Assembly (NCBI GenBank): GCA_016934955.1
Contig: JAFGRY010000007.1
Coordinates: forward strand, 1-48,180
Direction: 5' to 3'
From: a bacterium
GTDB taxonomy: Bacteria; Zhuqueibacterota; QNDG01; JAGLOF01
Length of the DNA: 48,180 nucleotides
Shown here: one piece after another, positions 10,922 through 25,983 of the stretch
Layout of the letters: every line of letters starts with the position of its first letter
Numbering within the stretch: the first letter of the stretch is position 1
Position numbers and translations under genes: made by a program
The notes under the pieces: model-generated
Told to the model about the DNA's origin: nothing
Database searches by the model: none
Seen by the model: the letters and a program-made list of their open reading frames with translations, nothing else

Positions 10922-12232
10922 ATGGATCTGAAGCGCCGGATTGAATCCAGGGAAGCGGTGATCGGTGTCATCGGCCTGGGGTATGTCGGGCTGCCGCTTC
11001 TGATGGAATACGTGCACGAGGGGTATCAGTGTATCGGTTTCGATATCGATCAGAGCAAGGTGGACAAGCTGCTGTCGGGCCGTACCTATATAAAGCATAT
11101 TTCAGCTGACAGGATCGGGGAGATGAACAGGAGCGGCAGGTTCGACGCCACCACCGATTTCAGCCGCCTGCAGGAGGCCGACTGCATAATGGTGGCGGTG
11201 CCCACTCCCCTGGACAAGCATCAGCAGCCCGACCTGAGCTACATCGAGAATACCTCGGAAGTGATCTCTAACCATCTCCGCAAGGGCCAGCTGATCGTGC
11301 TGGAAAGCTCGACCTGGCCTGGGACGACCATGGAAGTGATGAAACCGATTCTCGAGCGCTCGGGGCTCTCCTATCCGGATGATTTCATGCTCGCGTTTTC
11401 TCCCGAACGGGAAGATCCCAACAATCCCGATTTCACGACAAAAACGATCCCGAAAGTGGTGGGCGCCAATGACGCGGCAAGCAGAACCTGCGCTGAAGCC
11501 CTCTACTCGGCGGTCATCGTTGAAACGGTGATGGTCTCTTCCACCCAGGCGGCCGAGGCGACGAAACTGCTTGAAAATATTTTCCGCAGCATCAATATCG
11601 CTCTTGTGAACGAAATGAAAATGATTCTTGACCGTATGGATATCGATGTCTGGGAAGTGATCAGGGCGGCGTCGACGAAACCATTCGGATACATGCCCTT
11701 CTATCCAGGGCCCGGACTGGGGGGGCACTGCATTCCCATCGACCCCTTCTATCTCACCTACAAGGCGAAAGAGTACGACATGCCGACCCGCTTTATTGAA
11801 CTCGCCGGTGAGATCAATACCCAGATGCCTTACTGGGTGGTGGAAAAAGTGCTGAAGACACTCAGTGACCGGGGCAAGCCTCTCAGCGGTTCCAGGATCC
11901 TGATTCTGGGGGCGGCCTACAAGAAAAACGTCGATGATATGCGGGAAAGCCCGACGCTGAAGCTGATCAACCTGTTTGAAGAGCGGGGTGCGGTCGTTGA
12001 TTACAATGATCCGCATATTCCGGTGATGCCCAAGGTGCGGAAGTATCATTACGACATGGAAAGCGTCGAGCTGACACCGGAATCGCTGTCATCCTACGAC
12101 CTGGTGTTTATTTCAACCGCTCATGATGCCTATGATTACGATTTCATCGTCGAGCATGCGCAGCTGGTCGTCGATACCAGAAATGCCACCGGCAACGTCA
12201 CCCGCAACCGTGATAAAATAGTCAAGGCGTAG
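10922..12232 (+). CDS. UDP-sugar 6-dehydrogenase (UDP-GlcNAc/UDP-Glc dehydrogenase family)
   Basis: The 436-residue NAD-dependent enzyme oxidises the C6 hydroxyl of a UDP-hexose to a carboxylate in two steps. The N-terminal motif is GVIGLGYVGLPL. VPTPLD and ESSTWPGTT are typical of the WbpA/WecC/TviB subgroup acting on N-acetylated sugars. The catalytic Cys is in GGHCIPIDP. The C-terminal UDP-binding domain has GAAYKKNVDDMRESP. I chose the ATG at 10922 because GGAGGGG lies just upstream of it, within the reading frame opened by an earlier ATG at 10910. The exact substrate (UDP-GlcNAc, UDP-GalNAc or UDP-Glc) cannot be fixed by reading. The product would be a uronic acid donor, so the polysaccharide is probably acidic. 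Confidence 0.92.
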   Translation: MDLKRRIESREAVIGVIGLGYVGLPLLMEYVHEGYQCIGFDIDQSKVDKLLSGRTYIKHISADRIGEMNRSGRFDATTDFSRLQEADCIMVAVPTPLDKHQQPDLSYIENTSEVISNHLRKGQLIVLESSTWPGTTMEVMKPILERSGLSYPDDFMLAFSPEREDPNNPDFTTKTIPKVVGANDAASRTCAEALYSAVIVETVMVSSTQAAEATKLLENIFRSINIALVNEMKMILDRMDIDVWEVIRAASTKPFGYMPFYPGPGLGGHCIPIDPFYLTYKAKEYDMPTRFIELAGEINTQMPYWVVEKVLKTLSDRGKPLSGSRILILGAAYKKNVDDMRESPTLKLINLFEERGAVVDYNDPHIPVMPKVRKYHYDMESVELTPESLSSYDLVFISTAHDAYDYDFIVEHAQLVVDTRNATGNVTRNRDKIVKA

Positions 12233-12256
12233 CATCACTTTATTCAGGAAACAGCC

Positions 12257-13561
12257 ATGAAACGTGTTACCAATCCGCCATTGCTCCTGCTGTTTGTCCT
12301 CCTGCTGAGCGGAGGACAGCGTCTCGGAGCGCAGATCATCGACGACGATCAGGCGCTGCGGAAAAAGCAGAGCTCGATGCCGAAAGCGATCAATTTTTAC
12401 GAGCTGCTCGATGAGAACAGGATCACCCGCGAAGAGTTCGACTACTGGAAGCGGAAACGGATGCAGAAGCTGGAGGAGCGGCTCACCGAGATGGAGGCCC
12501 TGGAAGGCGCCATCGATCCAGACATCTATCTGGTGGGGCCGGGAGATGTTTTCTATTTCAACATCTGGGGCGGCAGCGAGGACCGCTATCCCCTCACCGT
12601 CTCTCCAGAAGGGACGCTTTACATCCCCTCAGCGGGCGAAATTCCAGTCACGGGACTGACGCTCAATGAAGTGAAGCAGCGGGTGCTGAGCGCGGTTGAG
12701 CCGGACTATGAGGGCAGCCGGATCACTCTCTCGCTGGCGGTGGTGCGCATTTTCAGGGTGCATGTGACCGGTGAAGTCAATTTTCCCGCCACCTACACGG
12801 CCAACGCGGTCGACCGGGTTTCCGAGATGATCACGCAAGCGGGCGGTGTGACCGAACGGGCCTGGAAAGGCGGGATCCAGATCAGGCACCGCGACGGCAC
12901 GATGGATCGGTTCGACCTTGCTGCATTTGAGCGGGACGGTCTCCTTGACAATAATATTCATGTGACCGGCGGCGATATCGTTTACGTGCCGTCCGTGGGC
13001 CTGGGTGCGGGATTGATCACGGTCGAAGCCGACCAGGAATTCTCCGGTACCTACAGGATCGCCGGTGGAGAGGACCTGCTGGCTTTTTTGCAGCGGATCA
13101 GGGCGCTGAAACGGAACACCGACCTTTCCAAGCTGGTGGTGGTGCGGGAGGGGGAGACAGGGAAGCTCGAGAATTACAAGCCCTACGCGCCCTCTGAAGC
13201 GGGGAAGGCGGATTTTATCCTCACGTCCGGGGACCGGGTGATCCTGCCCTCCCAGTACGTCTATGTGAAAGGGGCGGTGCGGCAGGCGGGGGCCTACCCG
13301 TACGTCTTCAACCTCACGGCCAAGGAGTATGCCGGCATGGCGGGAGGCGATTACCGCTCGGCCTCGATTACCAGTGTCAGCGTCTATCACGCCCGCACCG
13401 GAATCACCGAAAAAGGGGCCGATGTGCTGGTTGAACCGGGCGATATCGTCCATCTCAACCTGGCCTGGCACCAGCGGGTTGGCGATTATCTCGGCATTCT
13501 TTATACCATGGCCTCACTCTTCCTTGCCGCCAAGGCGGCCGGACTGCTGGGCAAGAACTAG
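12257..13561 (+). CDS. Polysaccharide export protein, Wza-like (PES and SLBB domains)
   Basis: The 434-residue product begins with a signal peptide (LLLLFVLLLSGG, cleavage near GAQ) and has no lipobox Cys, unlike E. coli Wza. A charged, probably helical stretch follows (about 40-85). The polysaccharide export domain comes next (YLVGPGDVFYFNIWGG to LNEVKQRVL). Then come SLBB-type beta-grasp repeats: FRVHVTGEVNFPATY is the clearest, with a second near VYVKGAVRQAGAYPYVF. The C-terminus has one hydrophobic segment (ILYTMASLFLAAKAAGLL) that could be the outer-membrane-spanning helix. It acts with the Wzz-like protein encoded next to carry polysaccharide across the periplasm and outer membrane. AGGAAA precedes the ATG. 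Confidence 0.92.
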   Translation: MKRVTNPPLLLLFVLLLSGGQRLGAQIIDDDQALRKKQSSMPKAINFYELLDENRITREEFDYWKRKRMQKLEERLTEMEALEGAIDPDIYLVGPGDVFYFNIWGGSEDRYPLTVSPEGTLYIPSAGEIPVTGLTLNEVKQRVLSAVEPDYEGSRITLSLAVVRIFRVHVTGEVNFPATYTANAVDRVSEMITQAGGVTERAWKGGIQIRHRDGTMDRFDLAAFERDGLLDNNIHVTGGDIVYVPSVGLGAGLITVEADQEFSGTYRIAGGEDLLAFLQRIRALKRNTDLSKLVVVREGETGKLENYKPYAPSEAGKADFILTSGDRVILPSQYVYVKGAVRQAGAYPYVFNLTAKEYAGMAGGDYRSASITSVSVYHARTGITEKGADVLVEPGDIVHLNLAWHQRVGDYLGILYTMASLFLAAKAAGLLGKN

Positions 13562-13584
13562 TGACGGTAGATCGGGGATCGATT

Positions 13585-14802
13585 ATGAGTGATAAAAACA
13601 GTTTTCTGGATTATCTCTGGATTGTGGCCAGAAAGCGCGGTCTGATCTTCTGGAGCGTTTTCATCGCCGGCATCGCCGCCGCCGGGCTGAGTTTTATGGT
13701 CCCGGTCTGGTACCAGGCCGATACCTCCATCATGCCCCCGGTAGAGAACGATACCGGGTTCGCGTTATCCTCCGTCCTCAGTAATCTGCCGGTCGGAAAT
13801 ATCGACCTGCCCGGCACTGAAGACGGGACCGGCAGATTCATGGCCATTCTCGAGAGCAGGCGGGTGATGCAGCGTATTGCCGTGGCCTACCGGCTGCAGG
13901 AGCGGTACCGGCTTAAAAACATGGAAGAGACGATCGCTTTTCTGCAGGACAACACGAATGCCGAGCTTCAGGAAGACAATACGATCGTTCTCTCGGTAAT
14001 GATGAGAACGGGCTGGCTGCCTGACAAAGCGGCCCGGGATGAGGCGCGCCTGTTCGTGCGTGACATCGCGGACAGTTTCATTAGGGAGCTCGATGCGGTG
14101 AACCGGGACCTGAAAGTGTCGGAGGCCCGGAACACCCGTTTATTCATCGAGGAACGGCACGCAAAAGTACTTTCCGATCTCAGCGCCGCCGAGGAAGCAC
14201 TTCGGGCGTATCAGGAGGAGAACGGTGTCATCGCGCTGCCGGAGCAGGCTGCCGCGGCGATTGCCACGAGTGCGGAGCTGAAGGCGCAAATTATCACCAA
14301 AGAGGTGGAGCTGGAATACCTGAAGCGCAACTTCAGTGAATCGCACAGTGAGTTCGCGCGAAAGAAGCAGGAGCTGGCGGCCCTGAATGCCGCCTACCGG
14401 CGCTACCGTTTCGGGACAGGCTACACATTCGATGCCGGTGCCGAGGATAACCTCTCCATGCACGAGCTGCCGGCCCAGGTGCTGCAGTACGGCCGCCTTT
14501 TCAGGGAGGTTATGCTGCAGGAAAAGATACTTGAATTTATTATTCCCCAGCTCGAACAGGCGAAAATACAGGAGGCCAGGGACTCCCCGACAGTGCAGGT
14601 GCTCGACACAGCGGCTGTCCCTGAAAAGAAAGCGAAGCCGAAGCGGGTCGCGGTGACCGTTCTGGCCATGTTTTTTGCGTTTGTGTTTTGTTATGCGTGG
14701 GCGCTGTTCTCCATCAACCTGGATCGCCATCGTGAGCAGAACACCGCCTCCTGGCGGAAATGGCGTTCGATAACGAATGAACTGAAACATGGCAAGGAAT
14801 AG
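13585..14802 (+). CDS. Polysaccharide chain-length determinant (Wzz family)
   Basis: The 405-residue inner-membrane protein has the Wzz plan: one TM segment near the N-terminus (FWSVFIAGIAAAGLSFMV), a long periplasmic region and a second TM near the C-terminus (VTVLAMFFAFVFCYAWALF). The periplasmic part carries a coiled-coil-prone stretch (about residues 180-280). The Pro-rich motif before TM2 is present in short form (AVPEKKAKPKR). There is no cytoplasmic tyrosine-kinase domain, so it is of the kinase-free type. The ATG at 13585 is preferred over a GTG at 13561 because GGGGA lies upstream at normal distance. It overlaps the flippase gene by 14 bases, which suggests coupled translation. Confidence 0.9.
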   Translation: MSDKNSFLDYLWIVARKRGLIFWSVFIAGIAAAGLSFMVPVWYQADTSIMPPVENDTGFALSSVLSNLPVGNIDLPGTEDGTGRFMAILESRRVMQRIAVAYRLQERYRLKNMEETIAFLQDNTNAELQEDNTIVLSVMMRTGWLPDKAARDEARLFVRDIADSFIRELDAVNRDLKVSEARNTRLFIEERHAKVLSDLSAAEEALRAYQEENGVIALPEQAAAAIATSAELKAQIITKEVELEYLKRNFSESHSEFARKKQELAALNAAYRRYRFGTGYTFDAGAEDNLSMHELPAQVLQYGRLFREVMLQEKILEFIIPQLEQAKIQEARDSPTVQVLDTAAVPEKKAKPKRVAVTVLAMFFAFVFCYAWALFSINLDRHREQNTASWRKWRSITNELKHGKE

Positions 14803-16084
14803 CTTTGTCAGCGATACGGTCTGGATATCCGTATCGCGGGCCGTAACAATCCTTTTCAAGTTCATTCTGGATGTGATCATTGCCAACGAGGCGGGTAAGG
14901 AACTCTACGGCGGTTTTTCATACTATCTTCTGCTCATCCTGACCCTGTCGACATTCCTGTCCTTCGGCATTCAGAGCGCGAATAACTACTTTATCAGTTC
15001 GGGCGCCATCTCCGTGGCCCGGGTGAAGCGGATCAACATCAATTTCATGCTCGGCGTCACCGTGCTCGGCATGGTGATCTTCGCGCTCTTCACGTTTCGC
15101 GTAAACCGGACACTGAGCGAGTATATCAGCGACAACAGACTGTTGATACTCGGGGGCACCGGGTTCGCGCTGCTGGTGCTCAACAATGTGACGGTTTCAC
15201 TGCTCCAGTCGCTGAAAAAGATACGGGCCTATTCGGTGGTGTTTACTCTCAGCGCCGTAGTGCTCTGTGCGGCCTTCGGCACGATCTTCAGGGTCGTGCC
15301 CGTATCGATGCGTTCCTTCATCATCGTCTACGTCGCCGCGCTCTTCGTGGCCGATGCGGCGGGTCTGGCAGTGCTCGGCCGGGTGCTGAAAACACGCTCG
15401 GAACCGAGCCCCGGCAGTGACTACCGCATGTTTTTCCGGTACGGTGTCACCACCTATCTCTGTTCGGTCGCGATTTTCTTTCTGCCGCGGATCGACATGT
15501 TCATCATCAACGCGGTTCTTCCGGTCGAGCATGTGGGATATTATCGCATCGCGCTGAATATTGCGGAAAAGATCATTTTCATCTCCATCGCCGTCGCCGC
15601 GCTGCTGAAGCCGACGCTTCCTTCCATGCGCAAAGAAGAGAGCATTGGATTCATCAAGCGGATTTCGCGGATCAACTTTCTCATGATTGTCCTGATCGTC
15701 AGCGCTGTCTACGCGGGGGCCGGGCTGCTCATGACGGTATTCAGGGCGGAATACGCGCCCGCACTGCAGCCCCTGAGGCTGCTGCTGATCGCGTCTGTGT
15801 TTCTCTCAATGAACACGATTCTGGATGAGTTCTTTCTGGGAAGGAAAAAGCCCGGTCTCAATCTGATTTCCTATGTCTCCGGATTTATCGTCAAGGCCGC
15901 GGTCAGTTACCCCCTCATCAGCCGCTGGGGGATTACCGGTGCGGCTGTTTCGACGATTGCGACCTATATCGTTATTCTCGCAGTCAAACTGCTGCTGCTG
16001 AGAAAGCAGCTGAAACCGGCGGATTTGATTGTTATCACAAAAGAAGATCTGCTCTATGTCCTTAAACAGCTCAGGATTCAGTAA
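14789..16084 (+). CDS. Polysaccharide flippase (Wzx-like, MOP superfamily)
   Basis: The 431-residue polytopic membrane protein has about 12 hydrophobic segments. It fits the oligosaccharide flippase family, which moves undecaprenyl-diphosphate-linked repeat units across the inner membrane. Characteristic stretches are the N-terminal SVSRAVTILFKFILDVIIAN and the later LPVEHVGYYRIALNIAEKI, the usual central 'G.Y..A..i' motif of Wzx proteins. The start overlaps the Wzz gene by 14 bases and the stop overlaps the polymerase gene by 29 bases, so the three genes are probably translated together. Substrate identity cannot be read from sequence, because Wzx proteins diverge with their glycan. Confidence 0.9.
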   Translation: MARNSFVSDTVWISVSRAVTILFKFILDVIIANEAGKELYGGFSYYLLLILTLSTFLSFGIQSANNYFISSGAISVARVKRININFMLGVTVLGMVIFALFTFRVNRTLSEYISDNRLLILGGTGFALLVLNNVTVSLLQSLKKIRAYSVVFTLSAVVLCAAFGTIFRVVPVSMRSFIIVYVAALFVADAAGLAVLGRVLKTRSEPSPGSDYRMFFRYGVTTYLCSVAIFFLPRIDMFIINAVLPVEHVGYYRIALNIAEKIIFISIAVAALLKPTLPSMRKEESIGFIKRISRINFLMIVLIVSAVYAGAGLLMTVFRAEYAPALQPLRLLLIASVFLSMNTILDEFFLGRKKPGLNLISYVSGFIVKAAVSYPLISRWGITGAAVSTIATYIVILAVKLLLLRKQLKPADLIVITKEDLLYVLKQLRIQ

Positions 16085-17501
16085 GGGCAAGGCCGCAGCC
16101 GCGGCCGCTGCTGTCGCCGCCGCCGCATCGGGGGTGCTTTTCGCGTTCTTGTGCGGATCACTCTTCAGCGGTCTCTTCGTCACCCTGCTGGCGGTCTACA
16201 CCGTACTGATTTTCCGGAAAAGCGATGATGATTACGGCGTCATGTCCCCGAGACGGGTATTCCTGCTGCTTTACCTGGGGTACGGCATCGTGCCGTTTTT
16301 TTCCGTGCTGTTTCGCCACAGTGATTTTTACCAGGAGCGCTACGCCCCCCTGCTGAGCATATTCCACCGGTATCTCGACAACCCGCTTCCCGCGCTGCTG
16401 ATGATACTTGCCGGCCTGATTGCCTTTGAGGCCGGATACAGCGTTTCGCTGCGCCCCCGGAAGGTCCCGGCGGACATCGCCGGCACCGGAGCCCTGCTCT
16501 GGACCTCCATCGTGTTCTATGGCGTGACGGCTCTCTTTTTCGGAAAATTGGTTCTCTTCATCATGCAGCGGCTTTCGGTTTTTTCCTTTCTCAATTACAG
16601 CGAGCTCTACGAAATGCTGGGAGCGCCTTCCTATCTTGTCGGGATCGGGCTGGGCTGGTTCAGTGTGGCCATCGTCATTCTGTATGTCGCCTCTCACATC
16701 GGCAATAAAAAAATCCTGCGGATTGTGGCCCTGGCATCGCTGGCGGCGTTTGTCGTGTTCTGTGTACTGATGGGGAAGCGGCGAATCGTCGTCACGACGC
16801 TGCTGGCGCTCGTGCTCTTTCGTCACTATTATATCAAGCGTATTCCCCGCTGGGTGGTGACCGCCATGTTTCTTCTGGGCACCTGGTTCGTCAATCTGGT
16901 GGCCAACCTGCGCATTCTCAACATTGTCAGCCGCCGCTACCTGGAGCTGGTGATGGATGTGGTCCGATCACTCAATCCCCTGGAGGCGCTGATCAACCTG
17001 AGCGTCATCTCCGAGTTTCAGATGCCCTTCGGAACCTTTCTCACGCTGACAAACCGGGTCCCCTCCCGGGAACCCTTCATGGCCGGGGAAAGTTACCTGA
17101 AAGCGCCGCTGGTGATGATCCCGCGCTCTCTCATGGAAAACCGATGGGACGGACTCGGGCCCTGGTTCGTCGACCATTTTTTCCCGCAGTACAAGGGCAC
17201 CGGATTCGCGTTTTTTATTCTCGGAGAGCCCTACCTCAATTTCGGCATCGTCGGCGTCATTCTCTTCATGGTCTTCTTCGGGATGACGATGAAATTGCTT
17301 GCCGGACTGCTGAAGGAAAACAGGGAGCGTCCCTTCGCGGTGCTGCTGATAAGTTATGCGGTCGCGTTTATGTTTTCCTTCATCCGCATGGATATTGTCT
17401 GTCTGAGAGAGCTGATGTATACATTTATTCTCCCGGTGATTCTCGTGCTCGTCATCGCAAACATGCTGGTCAGGCTCAATGAACATATTATTCTTCGCTG
17501 A
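16056..17501 (+). CDS. O-antigen/oligosaccharide repeat-unit polymerase (Wzy-like)
   Basis: The 481-residue membrane protein has about 11-12 hydrophobic segments and a large hydrophilic loop in the second half (about residues 300-385, including FGTFLTLTNRVPSREPFMAG). This is the plan of Wzy-type polymerases, which join repeat units in the periplasm. Primary sequence is weakly conserved in this family, so the call rests on topology and position between flippase and glycosyltransferases. The N-terminus holds an Ala-rich tract (GKAAAAAAAVAAAASG). The start at 16056 lies inside the end of wzx (29-base overlap); a TTG 27 bases earlier is less likely. It overlaps the next gene by 23 bases. Confidence 0.82.
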   Translation: MSLNSSGFSKGKAAAAAAAVAAAASGVLFAFLCGSLFSGLFVTLLAVYTVLIFRKSDDDYGVMSPRRVFLLLYLGYGIVPFFSVLFRHSDFYQERYAPLLSIFHRYLDNPLPALLMILAGLIAFEAGYSVSLRPRKVPADIAGTGALLWTSIVFYGVTALFFGKLVLFIMQRLSVFSFLNYSELYEMLGAPSYLVGIGLGWFSVAIVILYVASHIGNKKILRIVALASLAAFVVFCVLMGKRRIVVTTLLALVLFRHYYIKRIPRWVVTAMFLLGTWFVNLVANLRILNIVSRRYLELVMDVVRSLNPLEALINLSVISEFQMPFGTFLTLTNRVPSREPFMAGESYLKAPLVMIPRSLMENRWDGLGPWFVDHFFPQYKGTGFAFFILGEPYLNFGIVGVILFMVFFGMTMKLLAGLLKENRERPFAVLLISYAVAFMFSFIRMDIVCLRELMYTFILPVILVLVIANMLVRLNEHIILR

Positions 17502-18561
17502 CGCGTCCGACATTCACACCAAACGCTGGGTTTCCTGGTACAGAGACAGGGGCTACCGGGTCGATGTTATCTCCTTTCTGCCCGCGGAGATCGAGGGGGT
17601 GACGGTCCACCATATCAACGCCGGAAAAGTCGAGCCCTACCGGCTCAACTTCAAGTATGTGCTCCATCTCTGGAAGGTCGCCCGTGTCCGTATGCGCATT
17701 CGGGCCGATATCGTGATGGCGCATTATATCGCCAGTTACGGGGTTCTGGCCGCTCTTTTCTGCCGTCATTTTTTTGCGGTTCCCATGGGTACCGATGTCA
17801 AGGTAATCCCGCACCGGCACATGCTGCTGCAGTGGATGACACGGTTTGTTCTTAAACGGGCACAGCTGATATTCTCGACGGCGCAGCATATCACCGCCGA
17901 TCTTACGGGGATGTCCATTCCTTCCGAAAAAATCGTTACCTTGCAGTACGGCATCAACGGCCGCCGCTTCGCCGGCAGCGCGCGGGGCGTCAGGGATACG
18001 GTATGTCTTTCGTCACGGGCTCTGAAAAGAAATTCGAACGTCGATGTGATCATCAGGGCGTGTGCCCTGGCCGCGCAGACGTTTCCGGAGCTGCGTCTCA
18101 TCATCGCGGGTGACGGCCCCGAGCGCGCCGCTCTGCACCGGGAAGCGGCGGCGCTGACGGGCGCGCGCGCGCCGGAATTCCGGGGGATGATGCCCGAGCC
18201 GGACCTGGCTGAGCTGCTGAAAAAAAGCCTCATATTTATTTCTCTCACCAGTTCCGACGGCGCGCCCCTCTCACTGCTGGAAGCGATGTATGCCGGCTGC
18301 ATCTGCATCGCCTCAGATATTCCCGCGCATCGTGAATGGCTGCGTGACGGGGAAAGCGGGTTTCTCTGTCCCGTGGATGCGGTTTCGCTGGCCGGATGCA
18401 TCAGCACCGTTTTCGCGCTCGATGAAGAGAGCCGGACAGCGATGAGACAGGCGGCGGCGGAAACCGTGAACGAACGCGGCCTTTTTATTAACAATATGCG
18501 CTATATGGAAAACCGGATGTGTTCTTTCCTTGACCCGGGAATCAGTGATGAGAGAAACTGA
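17479..18561 (+). CDS. Glycosyltransferase family 4 (GT-B fold)
   Basis: The 360-residue cytoplasmic enzyme has two Rossmann-like domains. The N-terminal domain starts MNILFFADASDIHTKRW, a pattern common in family 4 enzymes. The C-terminal domain has the donor-binding segment LRLIIAGDGPE and a version of the E-x7-E region, SSDGAPLSLLEAMYAGC. It would transfer one nucleotide-activated sugar, with retention, onto the growing lipid-linked repeat unit. Donor and acceptor are unknown. The gene overlaps the polymerase gene by 23 bases and the next glycosyltransferase by 14. With only two glycosyltransferases plus the initiating enzyme in the locus, the repeat unit is likely short. Confidence 0.9.
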   Translation: MNILFFADASDIHTKRWVSWYRDRGYRVDVISFLPAEIEGVTVHHINAGKVEPYRLNFKYVLHLWKVARVRMRIRADIVMAHYIASYGVLAALFCRHFFAVPMGTDVKVIPHRHMLLQWMTRFVLKRAQLIFSTAQHITADLTGMSIPSEKIVTLQYGINGRRFAGSARGVRDTVCLSSRALKRNSNVDVIIRACALAAQTFPELRLIIAGDGPERAALHREAAALTGARAPEFRGMMPEPDLAELLKKSLIFISLTSSDGAPLSLLEAMYAGCICIASDIPAHREWLRDGESGFLCPVDAVSLAGCISTVFALDEESRTAMRQAAAETVNERGLFINNMRYMENRMCSFLDPGISDERN

Positions 18562-19603
18562 GAAGGCACATACCGCACCGACGGGACAGGCCGTGCCGGA
18601 CACGATATCGGTGGTCATTCCCTGCAGAAATGAAGAAGCCCATATCGGCGAGCTGCTGGAATCGCTGCGCCGGCAGACCTGGCGCGGTCCGCTGGAGGTG
18701 ATCGTAGCTGACGGCATGTCAGAGGACCGGACCCGTGAGATTATCGGGGAGCTCGCGGGTGCGTATCCGGAACTGAACTGCCGGATCATCGATAATCCGG
18801 ACGTGAACATACCCGCCGGACTGAACCGGGGCATCGCCGAGGCGCGGGGGAATTTCATTATCCGCATGGATGCGCACGCCGTCCCCGCTTCGGATTACAT
18901 CGAAAGGACCATGGAAACACTGGACAGGAACGCGGATGTGGCGGGCGGTGTCTGTGTCACCAGGCCCGGCAGTGATTCCGTGATCGCCGACATCATCGCC
19001 GAGGCCTTTTCCCATCCCCTCGGCGTCGGCGACTCCATGTTTCGGCTTCCCGACCGGGTCAAAACCGGCAGAGAGATAGACACGGTGCCCTTCGGCAGTT
19101 TTACCAAATCACTCTGGCGTGAGCTGGGGGGATTCAACGAAGCGTATGTGGTGCATCAGGATTATGAATTCAATTACCGCGCCCGTATGGCCGGGAAGCG
19201 TGTCTATCTGAATCCCGCCATTGTCTCCTATTACTATGCCCGCAGCACGCTGGGAGCCGTTCGCAGGCAGCTCGGCCGCTACGGCGGCTGGAAGCTGCGC
19301 ATGCTGCTCAGGCACCCCGATTCCCTGAAGCTGCGCCATACGGCGCCGCTGCTGTTCATACTGTCATTGATCCTGCTGCCCCTGGCGGCCCTCTTCTGGC
19401 TTCCGGCAATTTTTCTATGGGTTGGGGAAATATTGTTGTATATTACAGCAGGGCTTGCGGCCGTTCTCAGTGTCAGCCGCAGGCGGGGATTCTCCCCAAG
19501 ACTGCTCCTGCTGCCGGGTGTCTTTTTCGTGATGCATTCCGCGTACGCACTGGGCATGCTCAGGCAGCTTATCACCGCCGGTGCAGGGAAGCGCGAACCA
19601 TGA
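18548..19603 (+). CDS. Glycosyltransferase family 2, ExoA-like, membrane-associated
   Basis: The 351-residue protein has an N-terminal GT-A domain. It shows TISVVIPCRNEEAHIGELL, the acidic pair in VIVADGMSEDRT, and the metal-binding motif MDAHAVP, in place of the more common DxD. The region FGSFTKSLWRELGGFNE and the later HQDYEFNYRAR segment are typical of ExoA-like inverting glycosyltransferases. Three or so C-terminal hydrophobic segments (LLFILSLILLPLAALFWL onward) anchor it in the inner membrane. The ATG at 18548 is preferred over a TTG at 18530. It overlaps the upstream gene by 14 bases and the downstream gene by 4 (ATGA). Confidence 0.9.
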   Translation: MRETEKAHTAPTGQAVPDTISVVIPCRNEEAHIGELLESLRRQTWRGPLEVIVADGMSEDRTREIIGELAGAYPELNCRIIDNPDVNIPAGLNRGIAEARGNFIIRMDAHAVPASDYIERTMETLDRNADVAGGVCVTRPGSDSVIADIIAEAFSHPLGVGDSMFRLPDRVKTGREIDTVPFGSFTKSLWRELGGFNEAYVVHQDYEFNYRARMAGKRVYLNPAIVSYYYARSTLGAVRRQLGRYGGWKLRMLLRHPDSLKLRHTAPLLFILSLILLPLAALFWLPAIFLWVGEILLYITAGLAAVLSVSRRRGFSPRLLLLPGVFFVMHSAYALGMLRQLITAGAGKREP

Positions 19604-20997
19604 CCAATGTTCATAAAAAAATCTATCTGTTCCTTTCCGATTATCTGGCGGTCACCGGATCGTTTTTTATCTGGAGCAGCCTGAGAATATCCATGGGATT
19701 TTTTTCCGAGGCCGGCTTCTGGCAGCTTTTCAGGCTCTCGCTCTTTGTCTTTATGTTCTGGTTTCTGCTGTTCGCCTTTTTCGGTCATTACCGGACCTGG
19801 TTCACCCGTTCCCGCACTGATGAAATTTTTGCGGTGGCCAAGACAGTATCCATCGGCATTTTTATTATCTTTCTCATGACCATGGATGTCAAATACGACA
19901 TCGAGCATCCCATCACCAGAAGCCGGACCCTGATCCTGAGCTACTGGTTAATGATGATGGTGTCTGTTTCCGCTGGACGTGTGCTGATCATTTCCGTTCG
20001 GAAAAAACTGCTGGAACGGGGTGTGGGGACCAGGGCCGCTCTTATTGTTGGGACCGGGGAAAAGGCGACGGAGCTGAGCCGGCAGATAGCGGAAGCGCCG
20101 GGTATCGGGTATAGGGTGCAGGGATTTGTGGCCCTGAGCCCCCGGGATACTGCGCAAATCGAAGACATGCCGGTCCTGGGAGATCTCGGAGCTCTGCCGC
20201 GTCTGATTCACGAGCGCGAGATCAGGGAAGTGCTGATCGGGGTCGAGGGTCATTCCGAACACGTGCTGGAGTCGATCATCGATGCCTGTGAGGGGACGGA
20301 CGTCGGGCTGAAGATCATTCCCGACCTGTATAATGTGATCATCGGTCAGGTGAAGACCAATCAGCTGTACGGGTTTCCGCTCATCGAGATACTGCCCCAG
20401 CTCATGCAGCCATGGGAATGGACGGTAAAGCGAATCGCCGATATTCTGTTTTCCCTCTTCATACTTGTCTGTTTTCTGCCTCTCTGGCTTGTGACCGCTG
20501 TGGCGATAAAGCTGGATTCGCGAGGGCCGCTGTTGTACAACCAGAAGCGGGTGGGCATGAACGGCAGGGTCTATACGATGTTCAAGTTCCGTTCAATGGT
20601 CGCCGACGCCGAGAAGATGACGGGTCCGGTATGGGCGACGTGGGACGATGACCGGGTCACCCGGTTCGGCCGCTTTATGAGACGGGTGCGGCTGGACGAG
20701 ATTCCCCAGCTGATCAATGTGATCAAGGGGGATATGTCCTGGGTCGGCCCCCGGCCGGAACGGCCGCATTTTGTGGAGAAATTTAAAAAGGAGATACCGC
20801 TGTACGCACGTCGTCTTCGGGTGAGGCCGGGCATCACCGGCTGGGCGCAGATAAAGGGCGTGTATGACCAGAACATCGAGCACGTCAAACAGAAACTCGC
20901 GTACGATCTGTTTTACCTGGAGAACATGTCATTGCGTATGGATTTGAAAATTATCATTTCAACACTGTATATCATGATGCAGTTCAAGGGACATTGA
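19600..20997 (+). CDS. Undecaprenyl-phosphate sugar-1-phosphate transferase (WbaP/WcaJ-type)
   Basis: The 465-residue enzyme starts glycan assembly by moving a sugar-1-phosphate from a nucleotide sugar to undecaprenyl phosphate. Four or so N-terminal TM segments are followed by a Rossmann-like domain (RAALIVGTGEKATEL) and a further hydrophobic segment (ILFSLFILVCFLPLWLVT). The C-terminal catalytic domain has KFRSM, the essential Asp-Glu in RLDEIPQ, and GPRPERP. RPGITGWAQIKG is also present. The true start is ATG 19600, four bases before the end of the preceding gene; the frame is open upstream to 19417, but only inside that gene. It is the last polysaccharide gene in the operon. The sugar transferred (often Glc or Gal) is not determined. 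Confidence 0.93.
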   Translation: MTNVHKKIYLFLSDYLAVTGSFFIWSSLRISMGFFSEAGFWQLFRLSLFVFMFWFLLFAFFGHYRTWFTRSRTDEIFAVAKTVSIGIFIIFLMTMDVKYDIEHPITRSRTLILSYWLMMMVSVSAGRVLIISVRKKLLERGVGTRAALIVGTGEKATELSRQIAEAPGIGYRVQGFVALSPRDTAQIEDMPVLGDLGALPRLIHEREIREVLIGVEGHSEHVLESIIDACEGTDVGLKIIPDLYNVIIGQVKTNQLYGFPLIEILPQLMQPWEWTVKRIADILFSLFILVCFLPLWLVTAVAIKLDSRGPLLYNQKRVGMNGRVYTMFKFRSMVADAEKMTGPVWATWDDDRVTRFGRFMRRVRLDEIPQLINVIKGDMSWVGPRPERPHFVEKFKKEIPLYARRLRVRPGITGWAQIKGVYDQNIEHVKQKLAYDLFYLENMSLRMDLKIIISTLYIMMQFKGH

Positions 20998-21030
20998 GGC
21001 GATCAATAAAAAGAGACGGAGTTGACAAGT

Positions 21031-22299
21031 ATGCTTGACATGAAGTTTATTCGGGAGCATCCCGAGGAAGTGAAAGCGGCGGTGAAAAACAAGGGCGAGA
21101 AAGCGGATGTTGCCCTGATGCTCGACCTGGATGAAGAGCGCCGGCGGCTGATTCAGGAAGCCGATGAGCTGAAAGCGGAGCGCAACACGGTCTCCAGGGA
21201 GATCGGGCAGGCCCGCAAAGAGGGGCGGGATGCGGCGGAGGCCATCGCCCGAATGAAAACTGTTTCTGATACGATCAGCGGCCTGGATGCCCGCCTGAAA
21301 GATGTTGAACAACGTATACATGACATTATGATCAGAATCCCCAATATGCCGCATGAAAGCGTGCCCGTGGGCGGGGAAGCCGAGAATCGGGTGGTGAAAA
21401 CCTGGGGAGATATTCCTGAATTCGATTTCACGGTCGAACCTCACTGGGATATCGGGCCGCGGCTGAACATTCTCGATTTTGACAGAGGCGCCCGTCTGTC
21501 CGGATCCAATTTTGTGACCTTCAGGGGTGCCGGTGCGGCCCTGGAGCGGGCGCTGATCAACCTCATGCTCGACCTGCACTGCCGCGAGCACGGATTCACT
21601 GAAGTCTCGGTACCCTTTATCGTGCGACGTGACATGATGTTCGGCACCGGTCAGCTTCCGAAACTGGAAGAGGATATGTATCACATAGAGGCGGACGACC
21701 TGTTTCTCATTCCCACAGCGGAAGTGCCGGTAACCAATCTGCACCGGGATGAGATGCTGGACGGTGACCGGCTTCCCCTCCGCTATACGGCATATACACC
21801 CTGTTTTCGCAGGGAAGCCGGATCCTACGGCTCCGACACCAGGGGGCTGATGCGGATCCACCAGTTCGATAAGGTGGAAATGGTCAAGATCGTACGTCCC
21901 GAGGACTCCTGGGACGAGCTGGAAACACTCCTGAACAGCGCGGAAAAGGTGCTGCAGCTGCTTGAACTGCCCTATCGGGTGCTGATGCTCGCCACCGGCG
22001 ATCTTTCCTTCGCCGCGGCCAAATGCTATGACATCGAGGTGTGGGCGCCGGGTATAGAGCGCTGGCTGGAGGTGTCATCCTGTTCCAATTTTCTTGATTT
22101 TCAGGCGCGGCGCATGAATCTGCGGTTCAAGCGGGAACGGGGAGCGAAACCGGAATATGTGCACACGCTCAACGGTTCCGGACTCGCTCTGCCGAGAACC
22201 GTCATTGCGATCATCGAGCATTACCAGACCGATGAGGGCACGATCGTTGTACCGGAAGTGCTGCGGAAGTATATGGGGGTGGAGGCTATCAAAGGGTAA
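21031..22299 (+). CDS. serS: Seryl-tRNA synthetase
   Basis: This 422-residue class II aminoacyl-tRNA synthetase charges tRNA-Ser (and tRNA-Sec where present). The N-terminal coiled-coil arm (about residues 30-105) begins after MLDMKFIREHPEEVK. Motif 2 is visible as YTPCFRREAGSYGSDTRG, and motif 3 as NGSGLALPRTVIAIIEHYQ. Length matches bacterial SerRS. The ATG at 21031 has GGAG (21018-21021) nine bases upstream; a TTG at 21022 is too close to that site. Only 33 bases separate it from the last polysaccharide gene, with no visible promoter or terminator, so it may be co-transcribed with that operon. Confidence 0.98.
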   Translation: MLDMKFIREHPEEVKAAVKNKGEKADVALMLDLDEERRRLIQEADELKAERNTVSREIGQARKEGRDAAEAIARMKTVSDTISGLDARLKDVEQRIHDIMIRIPNMPHESVPVGGEAENRVVKTWGDIPEFDFTVEPHWDIGPRLNILDFDRGARLSGSNFVTFRGAGAALERALINLMLDLHCREHGFTEVSVPFIVRRDMMFGTGQLPKLEEDMYHIEADDLFLIPTAEVPVTNLHRDEMLDGDRLPLRYTAYTPCFRREAGSYGSDTRGLMRIHQFDKVEMVKIVRPEDSWDELETLLNSAEKVLQLLELPYRVLMLATGDLSFAAAKCYDIEVWAPGIERWLEVSSCSNFLDFQARRMNLRFKRERGAKPEYVHTLNGSGLALPRTVIAIIEHYQTDEGTIVVPEVLRKYMGVEAIKG

Positions 22300-22459: not shown

Positions 22460-23368
22460 TTACCTGCTGATGATACAGAAAAGATTAATCCCGTGGGCTT
22501 CCGCTTCGACTTCGATCTCGCGGAAGGGGATGGCGGCTTTTGTGCAGATGCCGATGAGTTCCTCCGCCGAGCGGTGAATCAGGTTCCACTTGCCGACCAG
22601 CTCCATCCCGTTACGGGTGGGGTTTTTGGGGCTGAAGTTTCCGAAAATTATTTTCCCGTTCGGCTTCAGCAGGCGCCACAATTTTTTCAGCAGCAGCACG
22701 GCGATGCGTTCTTCCAGATAGTCGAACAGCCCCGCGGACCAGATCAGATCGTAGGTGCGGTCGGTTTTTATTCTGAGAACGTTTGAGATATCGATCGTGA
22801 TTCTGTTTTTAAACGGCGTGCCCTCGATCAGGCTCCGGGCGTATTCGATTGCTTCGGGCTCGTTATCGATGCAGTGTACAAAGAGATTCTCACCATTCGA
22901 TGATTCCTGGTAGGTTTCCAGGACATCCCGGCAGGAGCCGCATCCGAGGTCGAGAACATCAAAACGATCACCGGCACAGTGCGCCAGTTCGTCACATTTT
23001 TTCTTGAAGTATTCCTTGCGGTTACGCACTGACTCGGCCGCTTCATACGAGTGGAAGAGCTGGTCAAAAAGCCTGCCGGTCCCGTTATCAGCCGTTTTCT
23101 CTGTGTAGATCCAATCGATGAGCAGGTAATCTCCGGCATACCCCAGCGGTTTGTTCCGTGTGCGTCCGTGCATAATGCTCGTATCGATATCGGAGCAGAG
23201 ACGGAAGAACTCATCCTTCAGTTCGTCTTTCCTGGGTGATGTTCCCAGCGCTGAAGCGATGCGGTCGATCTGGGTAAAGAAGCGCTCTTTGTACTCCTGA
23301 GGATCAGATTCCCTGACCTGATGCAGCAATTCCTGGAACGCCCTGAATTCGGCGTAAATCGGTTCCAT
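22460..23368 (-). CDS. PhcB-like SAM-dependent methyltransferase
   Basis: The 302-residue class I methyltransferase has SAM-binding motif I VLDLGCGSCRD (138-148) and the ribose-contact acidic residue in HCIDNEPEA (Asp168). The N-terminal half has KPLGYAGDYLLIDWIY (73-88), the later GRLFDQLFHSYEAAESVRNR (98-117), and no transmembrane segment. From memory of the family, GYAGDY..., LFG/LFD...AVRNR and this two-part layout mark proteins annotated as PhcB-like. PhcB makes the 3-hydroxypalmitic acid methyl ester signal of Ralstonia. Homology is thus proposed by motif, and the product is unknown. The kinase gene lies 224 bases upstream on the same strand. AGGGGA precedes the ATG, and a palindrome overlapping a TTGACA lies about 40 bases upstream. 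Confidence 0.78.
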   Translation of the reverse strand: MEPIYAEFRAFQELLHQVRESDPQEYKERFFTQIDRIASALGTSPRKDELKDEFFRLCSDIDTSIMHGRTRNKPLGYAGDYLLIDWIYTEKTADNGTGRLFDQLFHSYEAAESVRNRKEYFKKKCDELAHCAGDRFDVLDLGCGSCRDVLETYQESSNGENLFVHCIDNEPEAIEYARSLIEGTPFKNRITIDISNVLRIKTDRTYDLIWSAGLFDYLEERIAVLLLKKLWRLLKPNGKIIFGNFSPKNPTRNGMELVGKWNLIHRSAEELIGICTKAAIPFREIEVEAEAHGINLFCIISR

Positions 23369-23406
23369 TCCATTCCCCTAAGACGTTTATTGCCATCCTG
23401 CAGCAT

Positions 23407-23426
23407 ATATGTCAATAATGACATAT
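23407..23426 (-). promoter_or_regulatory. Palindrome with embedded TTGACA upstream of the methyltransferase gene
   Basis: ATATGTCA (23407-23414), ATAA, TGACATAT (23419-23426) form a perfect 8-base inverted repeat with a 4-base centre. On the minus strand TTGACA lies across one arm, and AATAAA follows at about the right distance, a weak -10. It is the only clear regulatory structure in the 224-base gap between kinase and methyltransferase genes, and may be an operator that lets the methyltransferase be transcribed separately. The binding protein is unknown. Confidence 0.5.
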
Positions 23427-23592
23427 GTAATTGCTTTTAACATACCAGCAAATAACATACCATGCTGAAAGGGGAATTCTGGGATGATTCTAATCTATTG
23501 TAAATATATGATTTATATCCAGTGGCGCTGGGGGTGGAACTGCAGGCGGGGCTCCCGGCGTGTCGTTTTGGCTGAATTCCGGCCAGCAGGGA

Positions 23593-25431
23593 TCAATTGC
23601 CGAAAACCGTTCGCACTTTTGAATTCAATGATTCCATGGTGTACGGCTTCTGCAGGAAATTCGATGTTGTTTTTTCAAGTCCGTGCCGCATGATGATACT
23701 GTCGACATGACCGGACATAAAAAGAATCTTGATATCGGAGCGTATTTTCTTTATGCGTTCGGCGAGCGCCGGTCCGTTCATGCGCGGCATGATGATGTCG
23801 GTGAGCAGCATATCTATCTGACCTTCATAATTTCTGGCCAGTTCCAGGGCCGAAATTCCCTCTTCCGCCTGCAGTACCGTGTAGCCCTGTTTCTCGAGAA
23901 TGCGGGCCGTGAGTCTGCGTACGTGCAGCTCATCTTCAACCAGCAGAATGGTTTCCTTGCCGGTCTTGACCGCACGGTATTTTGGCATTTTCACCGGTTT
24001 TTCCATTTCAGGACAGGCGTCAACCAGGGGAAGGTATACTTTGAACGATGATCCCTTGCCCGGTTCGCTGTAGGCAATGATGTCTCCCTTGCTTTGGCGG
24101 ACGATGCCGTACACGGAGGCAAGCCCGAGCCCGGTTCCTTTGCCTTTGCGTTTCGTCGTAAAGAACGGCTCGAATATTTTCGCTCTGACCTCTTCGGTCA
24201 TGCCCTGGCCCGTATCGATGAAGGTCATACGCACATACCGGCCCGGTTTGAGTGCCAGTTTACCCATCCGGCAGTATGCTTCATCGAGCACCGCGTTGCA
24301 GGTTTGAATGGTCAGCGTACCGCCATCCACCATGGCGTCACGGGCATTGACGGCCAGGTTGAGCAGGATCTGTTCGATCTGGATCGGATCGGCCATCACA
24401 TTACCGATGTTGTCATTGAGCTCCACATTGAGGACAATGTTCTCACCGATGAGCCGCTGCAGCATCTTTCTGATATCTTCTATGACATCGTTGAGATTGA
24501 TAAGGTGCGGCTGCAGCACCTGTTTACGGCTGAAGGCGAGCAGCTGCTTGACAAGGTTAACCGCACGTTCACCTACGTGATAGATCGCGGCGAGATCTTC
24601 GCGCACCGGATGTGTCTTGGGCAGGGAGATCAGCGCGAGCTGGCTCGTTCCGAGAATCGCGGTCAGTATATTGTTGAAATCGTGGGCGATGCCCCCCGCG
24701 AGCTGCCCCACTACGGCAAGCCGTTCGGACTGAATGAGTCGCTGGCTTCTTTCTTTCACCTGCTTTTCAAGATTCTCCGCATGGTGCTGTATCTTTTCGT
24801 TCGCTTTCTTGAGCTCCTGGTTCGCCAGCCAGGCCGAACGCCGGTGATAGAGATGAAACTGGGAACTGGCAAGCGCGATCAGGATCGATGAGAGCATGAA
24901 GAAATTGTTGCTGACGAAAATGGGGATCTGAGCTGGTTCGAGAATAAGCACATTGGGGATGAAATAGCTCATCCAGGCAATGGTGAAGATGATCGCCCCT
25001 TCGAAAATGGTCATGGGCAGCAGCATTCCGAATCCGAGAATAGGCAGATTGATGCCGGCATAGTAGGGATCCGCCGGTCCCTGGTCGAGGCGGCACATAA
25101 TGGCGATGGAACCTGCCACAACCAGTGTCAGCACCGCGCCGAGCGTATAGGAATACCGCCGCCCGAGGGGTTTGCGGGTAAGGGTGAATATCATGACCGC
25201 AAAAAGGGTTGTCGCTATTCTGATGTAGAGAAAGATGAGGAAATGGTCAGGTTTGAAGACGGCATCCAGAATGGAAAAGAACGGTACCAGGCAGGCTGCA
25301 AGCAGGGCGCCGATGGCTGTGGCCCGGTTCAGGTAGGCCTGACGTTCCTGCTCAAAGGCGATTTCGAGATTTCGGTGGACATCGAAATATGAACGCCAGG
25401 CTTTCTTTGTTTTACTGAGAAATGATTTCAT
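23593..25431 (-). CDS. Six-TM hybrid sensor histidine kinase with C-terminal receiver
   Basis: The 612-residue protein has a short N-terminal cytoplasmic part, then six hydrophobic segments with short loops (about residues 38-58, 64-84, 94-113, 126-143, 146-164 and 169-190). A coiled-coil linker (200-232) follows. The dimerisation/phosphoacceptor domain has His250 in GGIAHDFNN. The ATPase domain carries NLAVNARDAM, DTGQGM and GKGTGLGLASVYGIV. A receiver domain (about 492-612) has Asp545 in LLTDIIMP. There is no extracellular sensor domain, so a membrane-soluble or small ligand is likely to be read by the TM bundle, as in PhcS, LqsS and CqsS. Next to a PhcB-like methyltransferase it may be the receptor. 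No separate DNA-binding regulator is nearby, so the output partner is unknown. Confidence 0.9.
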   Translation of the reverse strand: MKSFLSKTKKAWRSYFDVHRNLEIAFEQERQAYLNRATAIGALLAACLVPFFSILDAVFKPDHFLIFLYIRIATTLFAVMIFTLTRKPLGRRYSYTLGAVLTLVVAGSIAIMCRLDQGPADPYYAGINLPILGFGMLLPMTIFEGAIIFTIAWMSYFIPNVLILEPAQIPIFVSNNFFMLSSILIALASSQFHLYHRRSAWLANQELKKANEKIQHHAENLEKQVKERSQRLIQSERLAVVGQLAGGIAHDFNNILTAILGTSQLALISLPKTHPVREDLAAIYHVGERAVNLVKQLLAFSRKQVLQPHLINLNDVIEDIRKMLQRLIGENIVLNVELNDNIGNVMADPIQIEQILLNLAVNARDAMVDGGTLTIQTCNAVLDEAYCRMGKLALKPGRYVRMTFIDTGQGMTEEVRAKIFEPFFTTKRKGKGTGLGLASVYGIVRQSKGDIIAYSEPGKGSSFKVYLPLVDACPEMEKPVKMPKYRAVKTGKETILLVEDELHVRRLTARILEKQGYTVLQAEEGISALELARNYEGQIDMLLTDIIMPRMNGPALAERIKKIRSDIKILFMSGHVDSIIMRHGLEKTTSNFLQKPYTMESLNSKVRTVFGN

Positions 25432-25451
25432 ACAGTTCCGGCGCTGTCCCG

Positions 25452-25748
25452 TCAGGCTGCGAATGCGTCATTTCTGGTGATTTTCAGGCTCATGCCGTCC
25501 ATGTCCACAATTTCACCCAGTCCTTCGCTGATCTCGACTCCCTGCGGACTCTGGGCCATCCGCATCCAGCGGGCGATATCAGAGACGGCATACCGGCAGA
25601 TTACCAGGTTGCTGTTCTCTTCCTGCCAGTATTCCACGGTGTCTGCACCCCATGTCTTCTGAACAGGCCAGGCGTGCTTCATCCATTCGAGGAAATCCTG
25701 CATCTTTTTTCCGGACCGCATTGTGTTTTTGTAGGTAATGGTGTACAT
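25452..25748 (-). CDS. Small hypothetical protein, possibly dimeric alpha-beta barrel fold
   Basis: The product is 98 residues, soluble and without a signal peptide. It starts MYTITYKNTMRSG and continues with a Trp-rich central part (FLEWMKHAW, KTWGADTVEYW) and CRYAVSDIARWM. The pattern of beta-strand, helix, two strands, helix, strand resembles the ferredoxin-like dimeric alpha-beta barrel proteins (NIPSNAP and ABM-type), but I cannot assign a family. The start at 25748 is preferred; the frame runs upstream to 25823 but without a ribosome-binding site. It ends 20 bases before the hybrid kinase gene and is the first gene of the minus-strand set with kinase and methyltransferase, so a role in that signalling module is plausible. 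A small-molecule-binding or processing role would suit the fold. This is inference. Confidence 0.7.
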   Translation of the reverse strand: MYTITYKNTMRSGKKMQDFLEWMKHAWPVQKTWGADTVEYWQEENSNLVICRYAVSDIARWMRMAQSPQGVEISEGLGEIVDMDGMSLKITRNDAFAA

Positions 25749-25942
25749 AGTCCCGCCGCTGGTTTCGGATATCATTTTGCAATTATTGTGTTCAAAATGT
25801 AATATTTTTTCTCTTTCCGTCATACATGCCGAAATCGAAAAAATATCGATAAACGTATATTTCTCATGTATTTATACAAATATTTGCGTCTTCCTTATTT
25901 TGGGTGATGCGTTACGCAGGTGTGTAAAGGCAAAGGCCATAC

Positions 25943-25983
25943 CAAAAAAAACAGAGAGCGGAGGAAGGCTTCCTGCTCTCTGT
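25943..25983 (-). terminator. Intrinsic terminator of the galactoside operon
   Basis: A near-perfect hairpin spans 25951-25983 (outer stem ACAGAGAGC with GCTCTCTGT, then GGAA with TTCC). On the minus strand it is followed by eight T residues (plus-strand A-run 25943-25950). It lies 43 bases past the stop of the MFS gene and separates that operon from the signalling module downstream. Confidence 0.9.

What the first reader, a model, noticed from the sequence alone, without database searches (positions are those of the whole stretch)
22460..25748. Candidate PhcB/PhcS-like signalling module: small protein, six-TM hybrid kinase, signal methyltransferase
Three minus-strand genes form a self-contained set: a 98-residue unknown protein, a hybrid histidine kinase whose only sensor is a six-TM bundle, and a methyltransferase with the GYAGDY...ESVRNR pattern that I associate with PhcB-like enzymes. 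In Ralstonia, PhcB makes a fatty-acid methyl ester signal sensed by the membrane kinase PhcS. Here the receiver domain is fused to the kinase and no DNA-binding regulator is adjacent. Such a system in an FCB-type or candidate-phylum genome would extend known quorum-sensing chemistry. What I see is motifs, topology and gene order; the signal role is inference.
Basis: partly seen in the sequence, partly recalled or inferred. Interest (0 to 1): 0.8.

Follow-up and report, generated by a model that had tools for sequence, protein, structure and literature searches.

The report
Lipid-signal synthase paired with its receptor
A bacterium from the same order as one labelled candidate division KSB1 carries a methyltransferase, a membrane sensor kinase and a small protein whose genes stay together in related genomes; the first two are distant relatives of the PhcB/PhcS quorum-sensing pair and would likely make and sense a fatty signal molecule, which suggests that this way of talking reaches far beyond the Betaproteobacteria in which it has been described.

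Summary
The methyltransferase (MTase) is homologous to PhcB-type enzymes but falls outside their clade. The kinase's six-helix sensor is homologous to PhcS-type sensors: hhalign 99.2%, unrelated membrane segments at most 0.6%. The same sensor type lies beside, or fused to, such MTases in five named phyla or candidate divisions. Some relatives without the sensor neighbour fatty-acid desaturases or are fused to patatin, which points to lipid substrates. New here: conserved sigma-54-like sites before both transcription units, a predicted ABM-type fold for the small protein, and exopolysaccharide genes next door. Signal chemistry, export and quorum behaviour remain inference. Verdict: a new variant of Phc-type signalling, well supported as a module, unproven as quorum sensing.

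The parts
22460..23368 (-). PhcB-family class I SAM methyltransferase, 302 aa, short form (motifs GYAGDY, ESVRNR, SAGLFDY, GNF..NPTR, GINLFC)
23593..25431 (-). Hybrid histidine kinase, 612 aa: six-helix PhcS/MASE8-like sensor (about residues 30-200), HisKA (candidate phospho-His 250), HATPase_c, REC (candidate Asp 545)
25452..25748 (-). Small protein, 98 aa, predicted ABM-like fold (alpha/beta barrel half); conserved immediately upstream of the kinase in the order
23447..23462 (-). Candidate sigma-54 promoter TGGTATGTTATTTGCT, 94 bases before the MTase start; 7 of 9 triad loci (window included) have one with at most 1 mismatch and the GG/GC core
25929..25944 (-). Candidate sigma-54 promoter TGGTATGGCCTTTGCC (1 mismatch), 196 bases before the small gene; 8 of 9 triad loci have one
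21022..22299 (+). Gene with a 67-72% identical counterpart (421-422 aa) beside the module in three relatives (named serS from recall); flank, not part of the module
9896..20997 (+). Neighbouring exopolysaccharide gene cluster (sugar-nucleotide enzymes, Poly_export, Wzz, Wzx-like, Wzy, glycosyltransferase, sugar transferase); possible target, inferred only

Best explanation
Three adjacent genes, kept together in 9 of the 12 searched genomes of this order, encode a methyltransferase and a six-helix membrane hybrid kinase that are distant relatives of the PhcB/PhcS pair, and would most likely make and sense a lipid methyl-ester-like signal, while the small protein is predicted to have an ABM-type fold and would likely modify or remove that signal. 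Inferred working: the MTase methylates a fatty-acyl substrate; the product crosses or enters the membrane and is bound by the six-helix sensor; the kinase changes its autophosphorylation at the HisKA histidine and passes phosphate through its own receiver domain to an unidentified partner; the output feeds sigma-54-dependent transcription, including that of the MTase gene and of the small-protein/kinase unit themselves, giving positive feedback; exopolysaccharide synthesis next door is a plausible target. Shown here: homology, gene order, sensor-MTase linkage across phyla, conserved place of promoter-like sites, predicted folds. Inferred: substrate, signal, secretion, phosphoflow, promoter function, feedback, target.
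For: The triad is found in 9 of 12 searched genomes of the order. MTase against a PhcB-type protein: E 6.7e-20, 29% over the MTase domain; 39 residues kept in at least 90% of 10 window-group rows and at least 75% of 12 PhcB-type rows, many of them family-wide; 10 of the 120 listed hits (10 of 18 with a JGI name) are called 'extracellular factor (EF) 3-hydroxypalmitic acid methyl ester biosynthesis protein'. Sensor: the window-group HMM hits an ORF in 17 of 17 PhcB-type loci, E 8.7e-10 to 4.1e-18; hhalign between profiles 99.2%, E 3.3e-19; single PhcS-type sequences 97.7-97.8%, six unrelated membrane segments at most 0.6%. Linkage: all 77 ORF rows with the sensor, among 10,941 ORFs in MTase-centred loci (repeat fetches included), lie within 500 bp of an MTase ORF; 39 of 117 tree rows have it, 11 changes on the tree, at least 6 forced by starred branches. 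Lipid context in relatives: desaturase beside the MTase (L056, L079, L087, L105), KAS III (L087), patatin fusions (L125, L127). Sigma-54-like sites at 7 of 9 MTase genes and 8 of 9 kinase units (450 bases searched) against 98 of 4000 random 400-base stretches; a sigma-54 gene is in the genome.
Against: Most family MTases have no such sensor beside them (78 of 117 tree rows). The lipid neighbours and fusions listed are all at MTases without the sensor, and five of the six queries used to count them were picked because they had been seen there. The sensor also occurs without the MTase: G006, G080, G116, G129, G137, and a second one in the window's own genome. The MTase does not fall in the PhcB-type clade. 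No substrate, signal or export is shown. Even in Cupriavidus metallidurans, with all five phc genes, 3-OH PAME itself could not be extracted (PMC2864759, passage), so the chemistry cannot be read off the genes. The sigma-54 idea came from looking at these gaps; the window holds no more such sites than shuffles (4 seen, 4.45 expected), and they are not seen at other sensor-linked MTases (0 of 18; PhcB-type 1 of 12). The phosphate acceptor after the receiver domain is unknown.
Confidence: 0.55

Rival explanations
1. The MTase modifies an intracellular lipid or quinone and the kinase reads the state of the membrane; nothing is secreted and there is no cell-cell signalling.
For: Desaturase, KAS III and patatin neighbours of relatives fit membrane lipid metabolism; sensors of the same type occur without any MTase.
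Against: The closest system with known function, Phc, uses a diffusible ester and a homologous sensor.
Confidence: 0.2
2. The MTase is a CheR-like adaptation enzyme that methylates the sensor or another protein and so tunes the kinase.
For: One homologue is annotated as CheR; a sensor-PAS-GGDEF-MTase fusion exists in one polypeptide (L104).
Against: The CheR Pfam match is far below its cut-off (14.2 against 27 bits); patatin fusions and desaturase neighbours of relatives point to lipid substrates.
Confidence: 0.08
3. The three genes are neighbours for reasons other than a shared task (for example shared sigma-54 regulation), and the sensor answers to an unrelated cue.
For: In the order one genome has the kinase alone (G006) and one the MTase alone (G008).
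Against: The small gene is missing from the locus in both of those genomes; the sensor-MTase pair recurs in distant clades and once as a fusion.
Confidence: 0.12

Closest known systems
Phc quorum-sensing system (phcBSRQ) of Ralstonia and Cupriavidus
   Same: SAM methyltransferase gene beside a six-helix sensor kinase gene; homologous MTase domain and homologous sensor, tested on PhcB/PhcS-type stand-ins; the response regulators have receiver domains without a DNA-binding site (PMC11960443, passages)
   Different: Receiver fused to the kinase; no separate PhcR/PhcQ beside it; short MTase without the N-terminal region; extra ABM-fold protein; MTase after the kinase with its own sigma-54-like site; other phylum. 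[quoted passage not shown]
LsrG, YgiN, SnoaB and other ABM-fold proteins
   Different: No Pfam match, 21% identity or less to the listed chains, active-site residues not established
CckA-type hybrid kinases (HisKA-HATPase_c-REC)
   Same: Catalytic core scores best against NCBIfam CckA models (413 bits)
   Different: Far below the CckA cut-off (1000 bits); different sensor

Membership tests
Phc system (PhcB) | MTase domain homologous to PhcB | tested here: met
   E 6.7e-20 with the MTase of a phcBSRQ-like operon on a Paraburkholderia graminis plasmid; 39 shared conserved residues.
Phc system (PhcB) | Groups with PhcB in a tree | tested here: not met
   Window clade (10 rows, SH-aLRT 99) and PhcB-type clade (12 rows, 99) are separate; quick tree with open forks
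Phc system (PhcB) | Full-length form of about 470 aa with an N-terminal region of about 200 residues | tested here: not met
   Window protein 302 aa; 16 of 16 PhcB-type hits span nearly the whole 468-aa query; length of Ralstonia PhcB inferred from gene positions in PMC6989110 (passage)
Phc system (PhcS) | Homologous six-helix sensor followed by HisKA and HATPase | tested here: met
   The PhcS-type stand-ins have the phospho-His motif at residues 226-237 in 7 of 7 examined, two exactly at 230 as published for PhcS
Phc system | Separate PhcR and PhcQ response regulators in the operon | tested here: not met
   Neighbouring genes are an MFS transporter and the serS-like gene; receiver is fused to the kinase
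Phc system | LysR-type target PhcA | not tested
   Not searched in this genome
Phc system | Signal is a 3-hydroxy fatty acid methyl ester | not testable with these tools
   Needs chemistry
MASE8 (PF20968) | Match over the curated cut-off | tested here: inconclusive
   Precomputed for the window kinase (P0123) but no match in the held Pfam copy or in the genome search; weak matches below the cut-off in two relatives
ABM-fold proteins | Alpha/beta fold of the ABM kind | tested here: met
CckA | NCBIfam equivalog cut-off | tested here: not met
   413 bits against a cut-off of 1000
LqsS / CqsS sensors | Homologous sensor region | not tested
   No sequences obtained

The most novel reading that the evidence does not exclude
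A phylum-spanning lipid-ester language: one pairing of a PhcB-family synthase with one six-helix receptor type has been kept or acquired again and again across Bacteroidota, Verrucomicrobiota, Deltaproteobacteria, Betaproteobacteria and KSB1-type bacteria, plugged into kinases or diguanylate cyclases; in the KSB1-type order it has become a three-part, sigma-54-driven autoinduction circuit with its own signal-tailoring or signal-removing ABM-fold enzyme, and orphan receptors let non-producers listen in.
Probability: 0.3. Interest if true: 0.85.

Novelty: new variant of a known kind. Interest (0 to 1): 0.63.

Why it matters
Within Proteobacteria the phc cluster is reported with a restricted distribution, in Betaproteobacteria (PMC10653808, passages; that survey did not look outside Proteobacteria). 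If this module works as inferred, cell-cell signalling by lipid methyl esters is a much wider bacterial trait, also in a lineage for which our one search (candidate division KSB1 with quorum sensing; listing only) brought up a single microbial-mat paper. It gives a set of synthase-receptor pairs on which specificity and chemistry could be tested directly, and the ABM-fold partner would be a new kind of component in such a system.

Tried and rejected
A homology search by shared words made the 98-aa protein look like an orphan (2 hits, one of them the window's own); reading the DNA upstream of relatives' kinases showed a diverged but conserved family, so 'orphan' was dropped. A profile of the small proteins found no solved relative by sequence (best E 0.22). 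Aligning its W61 with catalytic residues of ABM oxygenases could not be done and is not claimed. The MASE8 Pfam model did not hit the window's genome. The MTase model's clear best match is an uncharacterised protein (3ocj), so it names no substrate. No Rfam match in the window. A search for a Ralstonia or Cupriavidus PhcB by name failed: the plasmid searches showed none among the organisms named (a few organisms were not named), and a 23S probe pattern hit 0 of 388 genomes; the stand-ins came from the family of Variovorax. Literature, listings only: searches (25 of 313 listed; 25 of 50; 4; 1) showed no Phc-like system outside Proteobacteria; one search listed 15 of 4,538, none with PhcB, and says nothing. 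Most subscription journals are not held. MASE8 as a word found one unrelated paper. No DNA-binding regulator among the 24 window genes scanned with Pfam; other window ORFs were not scanned.

Rows dropped or chosen: L015 was left out after one search failed. The tree holds 117 rows that I chose; held MTase loci left out include L127, L133, L134, L171, L175, L176, L177-L183 and, of the 16 PhcB-type loci, L216, L218, L220, L223 and L225 (three of these gave no picked MTase ORF). Six odd rows (L132, L169, L186, L174, L168, L070) were left out of the residue count. L095 counts as lacking the sensor although its next ORF is cut by the end of the stretch and stands where L090, a near-identical MTase locus, has the sensor kinase. 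In one search the MTase count of sigma-54-like sites is 6 of 9, not 7, because the ORF taken for L038 starts further upstream and hides its site.
Full report
WHAT IS THERE. The window is one whole contig (C26) of a 4.4-Mb genome, 90% complete. On the minus strand lie, in transcription order, a 98-aa gene (25748-25452), a 612-aa hybrid histidine kinase (25431-23593) and a 302-aa class I SAM methyltransferase (23368-22460). Pfam gives HisKA, HATPase_c and REC for the kinase, generic methyltransferase families for the MTase and nothing for the small protein. The kinase has six hydrophobic peaks between residues 37 and 187. Its core scores best against CckA models but far below their cut-off.

THE SET IS CONSERVED. 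Of the 12 genomes of the order in the searched set (own, one of the same family, ten of the same order), 10 have the MTase, 10 have the kinase sensor and 9 have both plus the small gene in the same order. G008 has the MTase alone, G006 the kinase alone, G004 (76% complete) neither; at both the G008 and the G006 locus the small gene is missing. The small protein looked unique in the word-based search but is a family, 28-40% identical to the window's over eight relatives (86% to one database hit), with M1, Y6, D18, W22, W27, G34, A35, C51, W61 and L77 invariant; G007 has a second, more diverged 86-aa copy in tandem.

METHYLTRANSFERASE. 1054 homologues at E up to 1e-3, 120 listed. Ten of the 120 bear the JGI name 'extracellular factor (EF) 3-hydroxypalmitic acid methyl ester biosynthesis protein', which I recall as the KEGG name for PhcB; eight others with a JGI name have general methyltransferase names. 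As stand-ins for PhcB I used a Paraburkholderia graminis plasmid with MTase, sensor kinase, receiver and receiver-plus genes in phcBSRQ order, and 16 of 299 genomes from the family of Variovorax (Burkholderiaceae in GTDB, recalled) with matches of 52-59% over nearly the whole query; 7 of the 299 had other, weak matches. That these are Phc is supported by gene order, by the start-to-start spacing of the first two genes (1408 bases on the plasmid against about 1417 that I infer for Ralstonia from positions in PMC6989110, passage), and by the phospho-His motif at residues 226-237 in 7 of 7 kinases examined, two exactly at 230, the position published for PhcS (PMC11960443, passages). The window MTase matches the plasmid MTase at E 6.7e-20, 29% over the MTase domain. 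39 residues are conserved in both groups; many are family-wide, but T70 is shared by both and kept in only 4% of 89 other rows. In a tree of 117 rows the window clade and the PhcB-type clade are separate and each starred (quick method, open forks, several long branches). So it is homologous to PhcB-type enzymes but not one of them, and it lacks their N-terminal region (PilZ by Pfam in the relative L016; PilZ-like in the PhcB-type proteins only by eye).

SENSOR. A profile built from the window-group sensors hits an ORF in 17 of 17 PhcB-type loci with E 8.7e-10 to 4.1e-18. Profile against profile: 99.2%, E 3.3e-19 over 185 columns. With the window-group profile against single sequences, two PhcS-type sensors gave 97.7-97.8%, other sensor relatives 79.4-98.7%, and six unrelated membrane segments, two of them 7TM kinase sensors, at most 0.6%. 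L55, D56, R71, M112, G126 and Y156 are invariant over 19 sensors. The nearest Pfam family is MASE8, but the held copy does not reach it for the window.

LINKAGE ACROSS PHYLA. With the Paraburkholderia plasmid that makes five named phyla or candidate divisions. Over all loci held, each of the 77 ORF rows with the sensor lies within 500 bp of an MTase ORF; the loci were centred on MTases and repeats are included, so this shows placement within the flank, not genome-wide exclusivity. Genome-wide, 10 of 147 genomes have both genes side by side, while five have a sensor without MTase, the window's own genome has a second sensor, fused to a HisKA_2 kinase, away from any MTase, and G003 has two further partial sensor hits. 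On the tree the linked state needs 11 changes, at least 6 by starred branches; 78 of 117 rows lack the sensor.

LIPID CONTEXT. A fatty-acid desaturase stands beside the MTase in L056, L079, L087 and L105, KAS III in L087, and two genomes have patatin-MTase fusions; a Deinococcus plasmid has a desaturase 1.4 kb away, and one PhcB-type locus (L229) has a patatin-like gene 845 bases off. 120 loci, 1.48 Mb, were looked at with six queries taken from these very loci, so L079, L127 and L229 are the new finds of that count. Apart from L229 these MTases have no sensor beside them; L056 lies in the group that the tree puts next to the window clade. This supports a fatty-acyl substrate for the family by association only.

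PROMOTERS. In the gap between kinase and MTase a motif of the -24/-12 sigma-54 type stands 94 bases before the MTase (no mismatch to TGGYRYRNNNNTTGCW). It was noticed because a 12-mer of this gap recurs in relatives. With the GG/GC core and at most one mismatch it is found at 7 of 9 triad MTases (76-104 bases upstream) and at 8 of 9 small-gene/kinase units (154-444 bases upstream); L119 has two mismatches at both, L037 lacks it at the MTase. It also stands with no mismatch before the lone kinase of G006; the MTases of G008 and G012 lack it. Two of the nine (L122, L123) are of one genus. Random 400-base stretches of the same loci: 98 of 4000 (the sites were sought in 450 bases). The gaps themselves are diverged (sequences). 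Against it: the window holds no more such sites than shuffles do (4 against 4.45; with no mismatch 1 against 0.14), and other sensor-linked MTases do not show them (0 of 18; PhcB-type 1 of 12; no sensor 0 of 75). A sigma-54 DNA-binding domain is encoded in the genome. Reading: both units are probably under sigma-54, which would let the circuit feed back on itself.

SURROUNDINGS. The next plus-strand genes are serS (name recalled) and, before it, a Wzx/Wzy-type exopolysaccharide cluster. Counterparts of serS and of the cluster's sugar transferase also flank the module in G001, G002 and G007, not in G003, so in 4 of the 5 triad genomes with at least 5 kb beyond the MTase; the rest of the cluster was not checked in the relatives. 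In Ralstonia, PhcA activation goes with exopolysaccharide production (PMC2864759 and PMC6989110, passages), so this is a plausible but untested target. No DNA-binding regulator is among the 24 window genes scanned.

VERDICT. A conserved synthase-receptor module of the Phc kind in a KSB1-type order, with a fused receiver, a predicted ABM-fold third part and sigma-54-like sites. Homology and conservation are shown; the signal, its export and its social use are not.

Noticed in passing
G000 contig C2, locus L244:4910-6262 (minus): A second receptor in the window's own genome: the same sensor type fused to a HisKA_2 kinase, with no MTase nearby; it could answer to the same signal.
   Followed up: partly
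L104:5766-8726: One polypeptide with sensor, two PAS, GGDEF and MTase (Syntrophaceae): synthase, receptor and c-di-GMP output would be fused.
   Followed up: partly
L016 (same protein in L128), L173; L032 and L177-L185 N-termini: Long-form MTases carry an N-terminal PilZ domain (Pfam in L016) or a PilZ-like region by eye; PhcB itself may have a cryptic PilZ domain, which would tie signal synthesis to c-di-GMP.
   Followed up: no
L125:6100-7923 (minus) and L127:1-1947 (minus): Patatin-like phospholipase fused to the MTase; L125 is followed by a Pkinase gene.
   Followed up: partly
window 23408-23425: Dyad TATGTCA-TTAT-TGACATA between the sigma-54-like site and the MTase start; could be an operator or leader hairpin.
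   Followed up: no
window 27340-30939 (minus): 1199-aa ORF that reads by eye as a glycoside hydrolase-like protein with a C-terminal sorting-type domain; a FlgD_ig domain also occurs in window 389-1051.
   Followed up: no
L246, L249: The same sensor type fused to a SpoIIE phosphatase (G080) and, by eye, to a nucleotide cyclase (G129); no MTase match in those genomes.
   Followed up: partly
L169, L172: Family MTases directly beside kinases with a different sensor, HisKA_7TM: perhaps another receptor class for related products.
   Followed up: no
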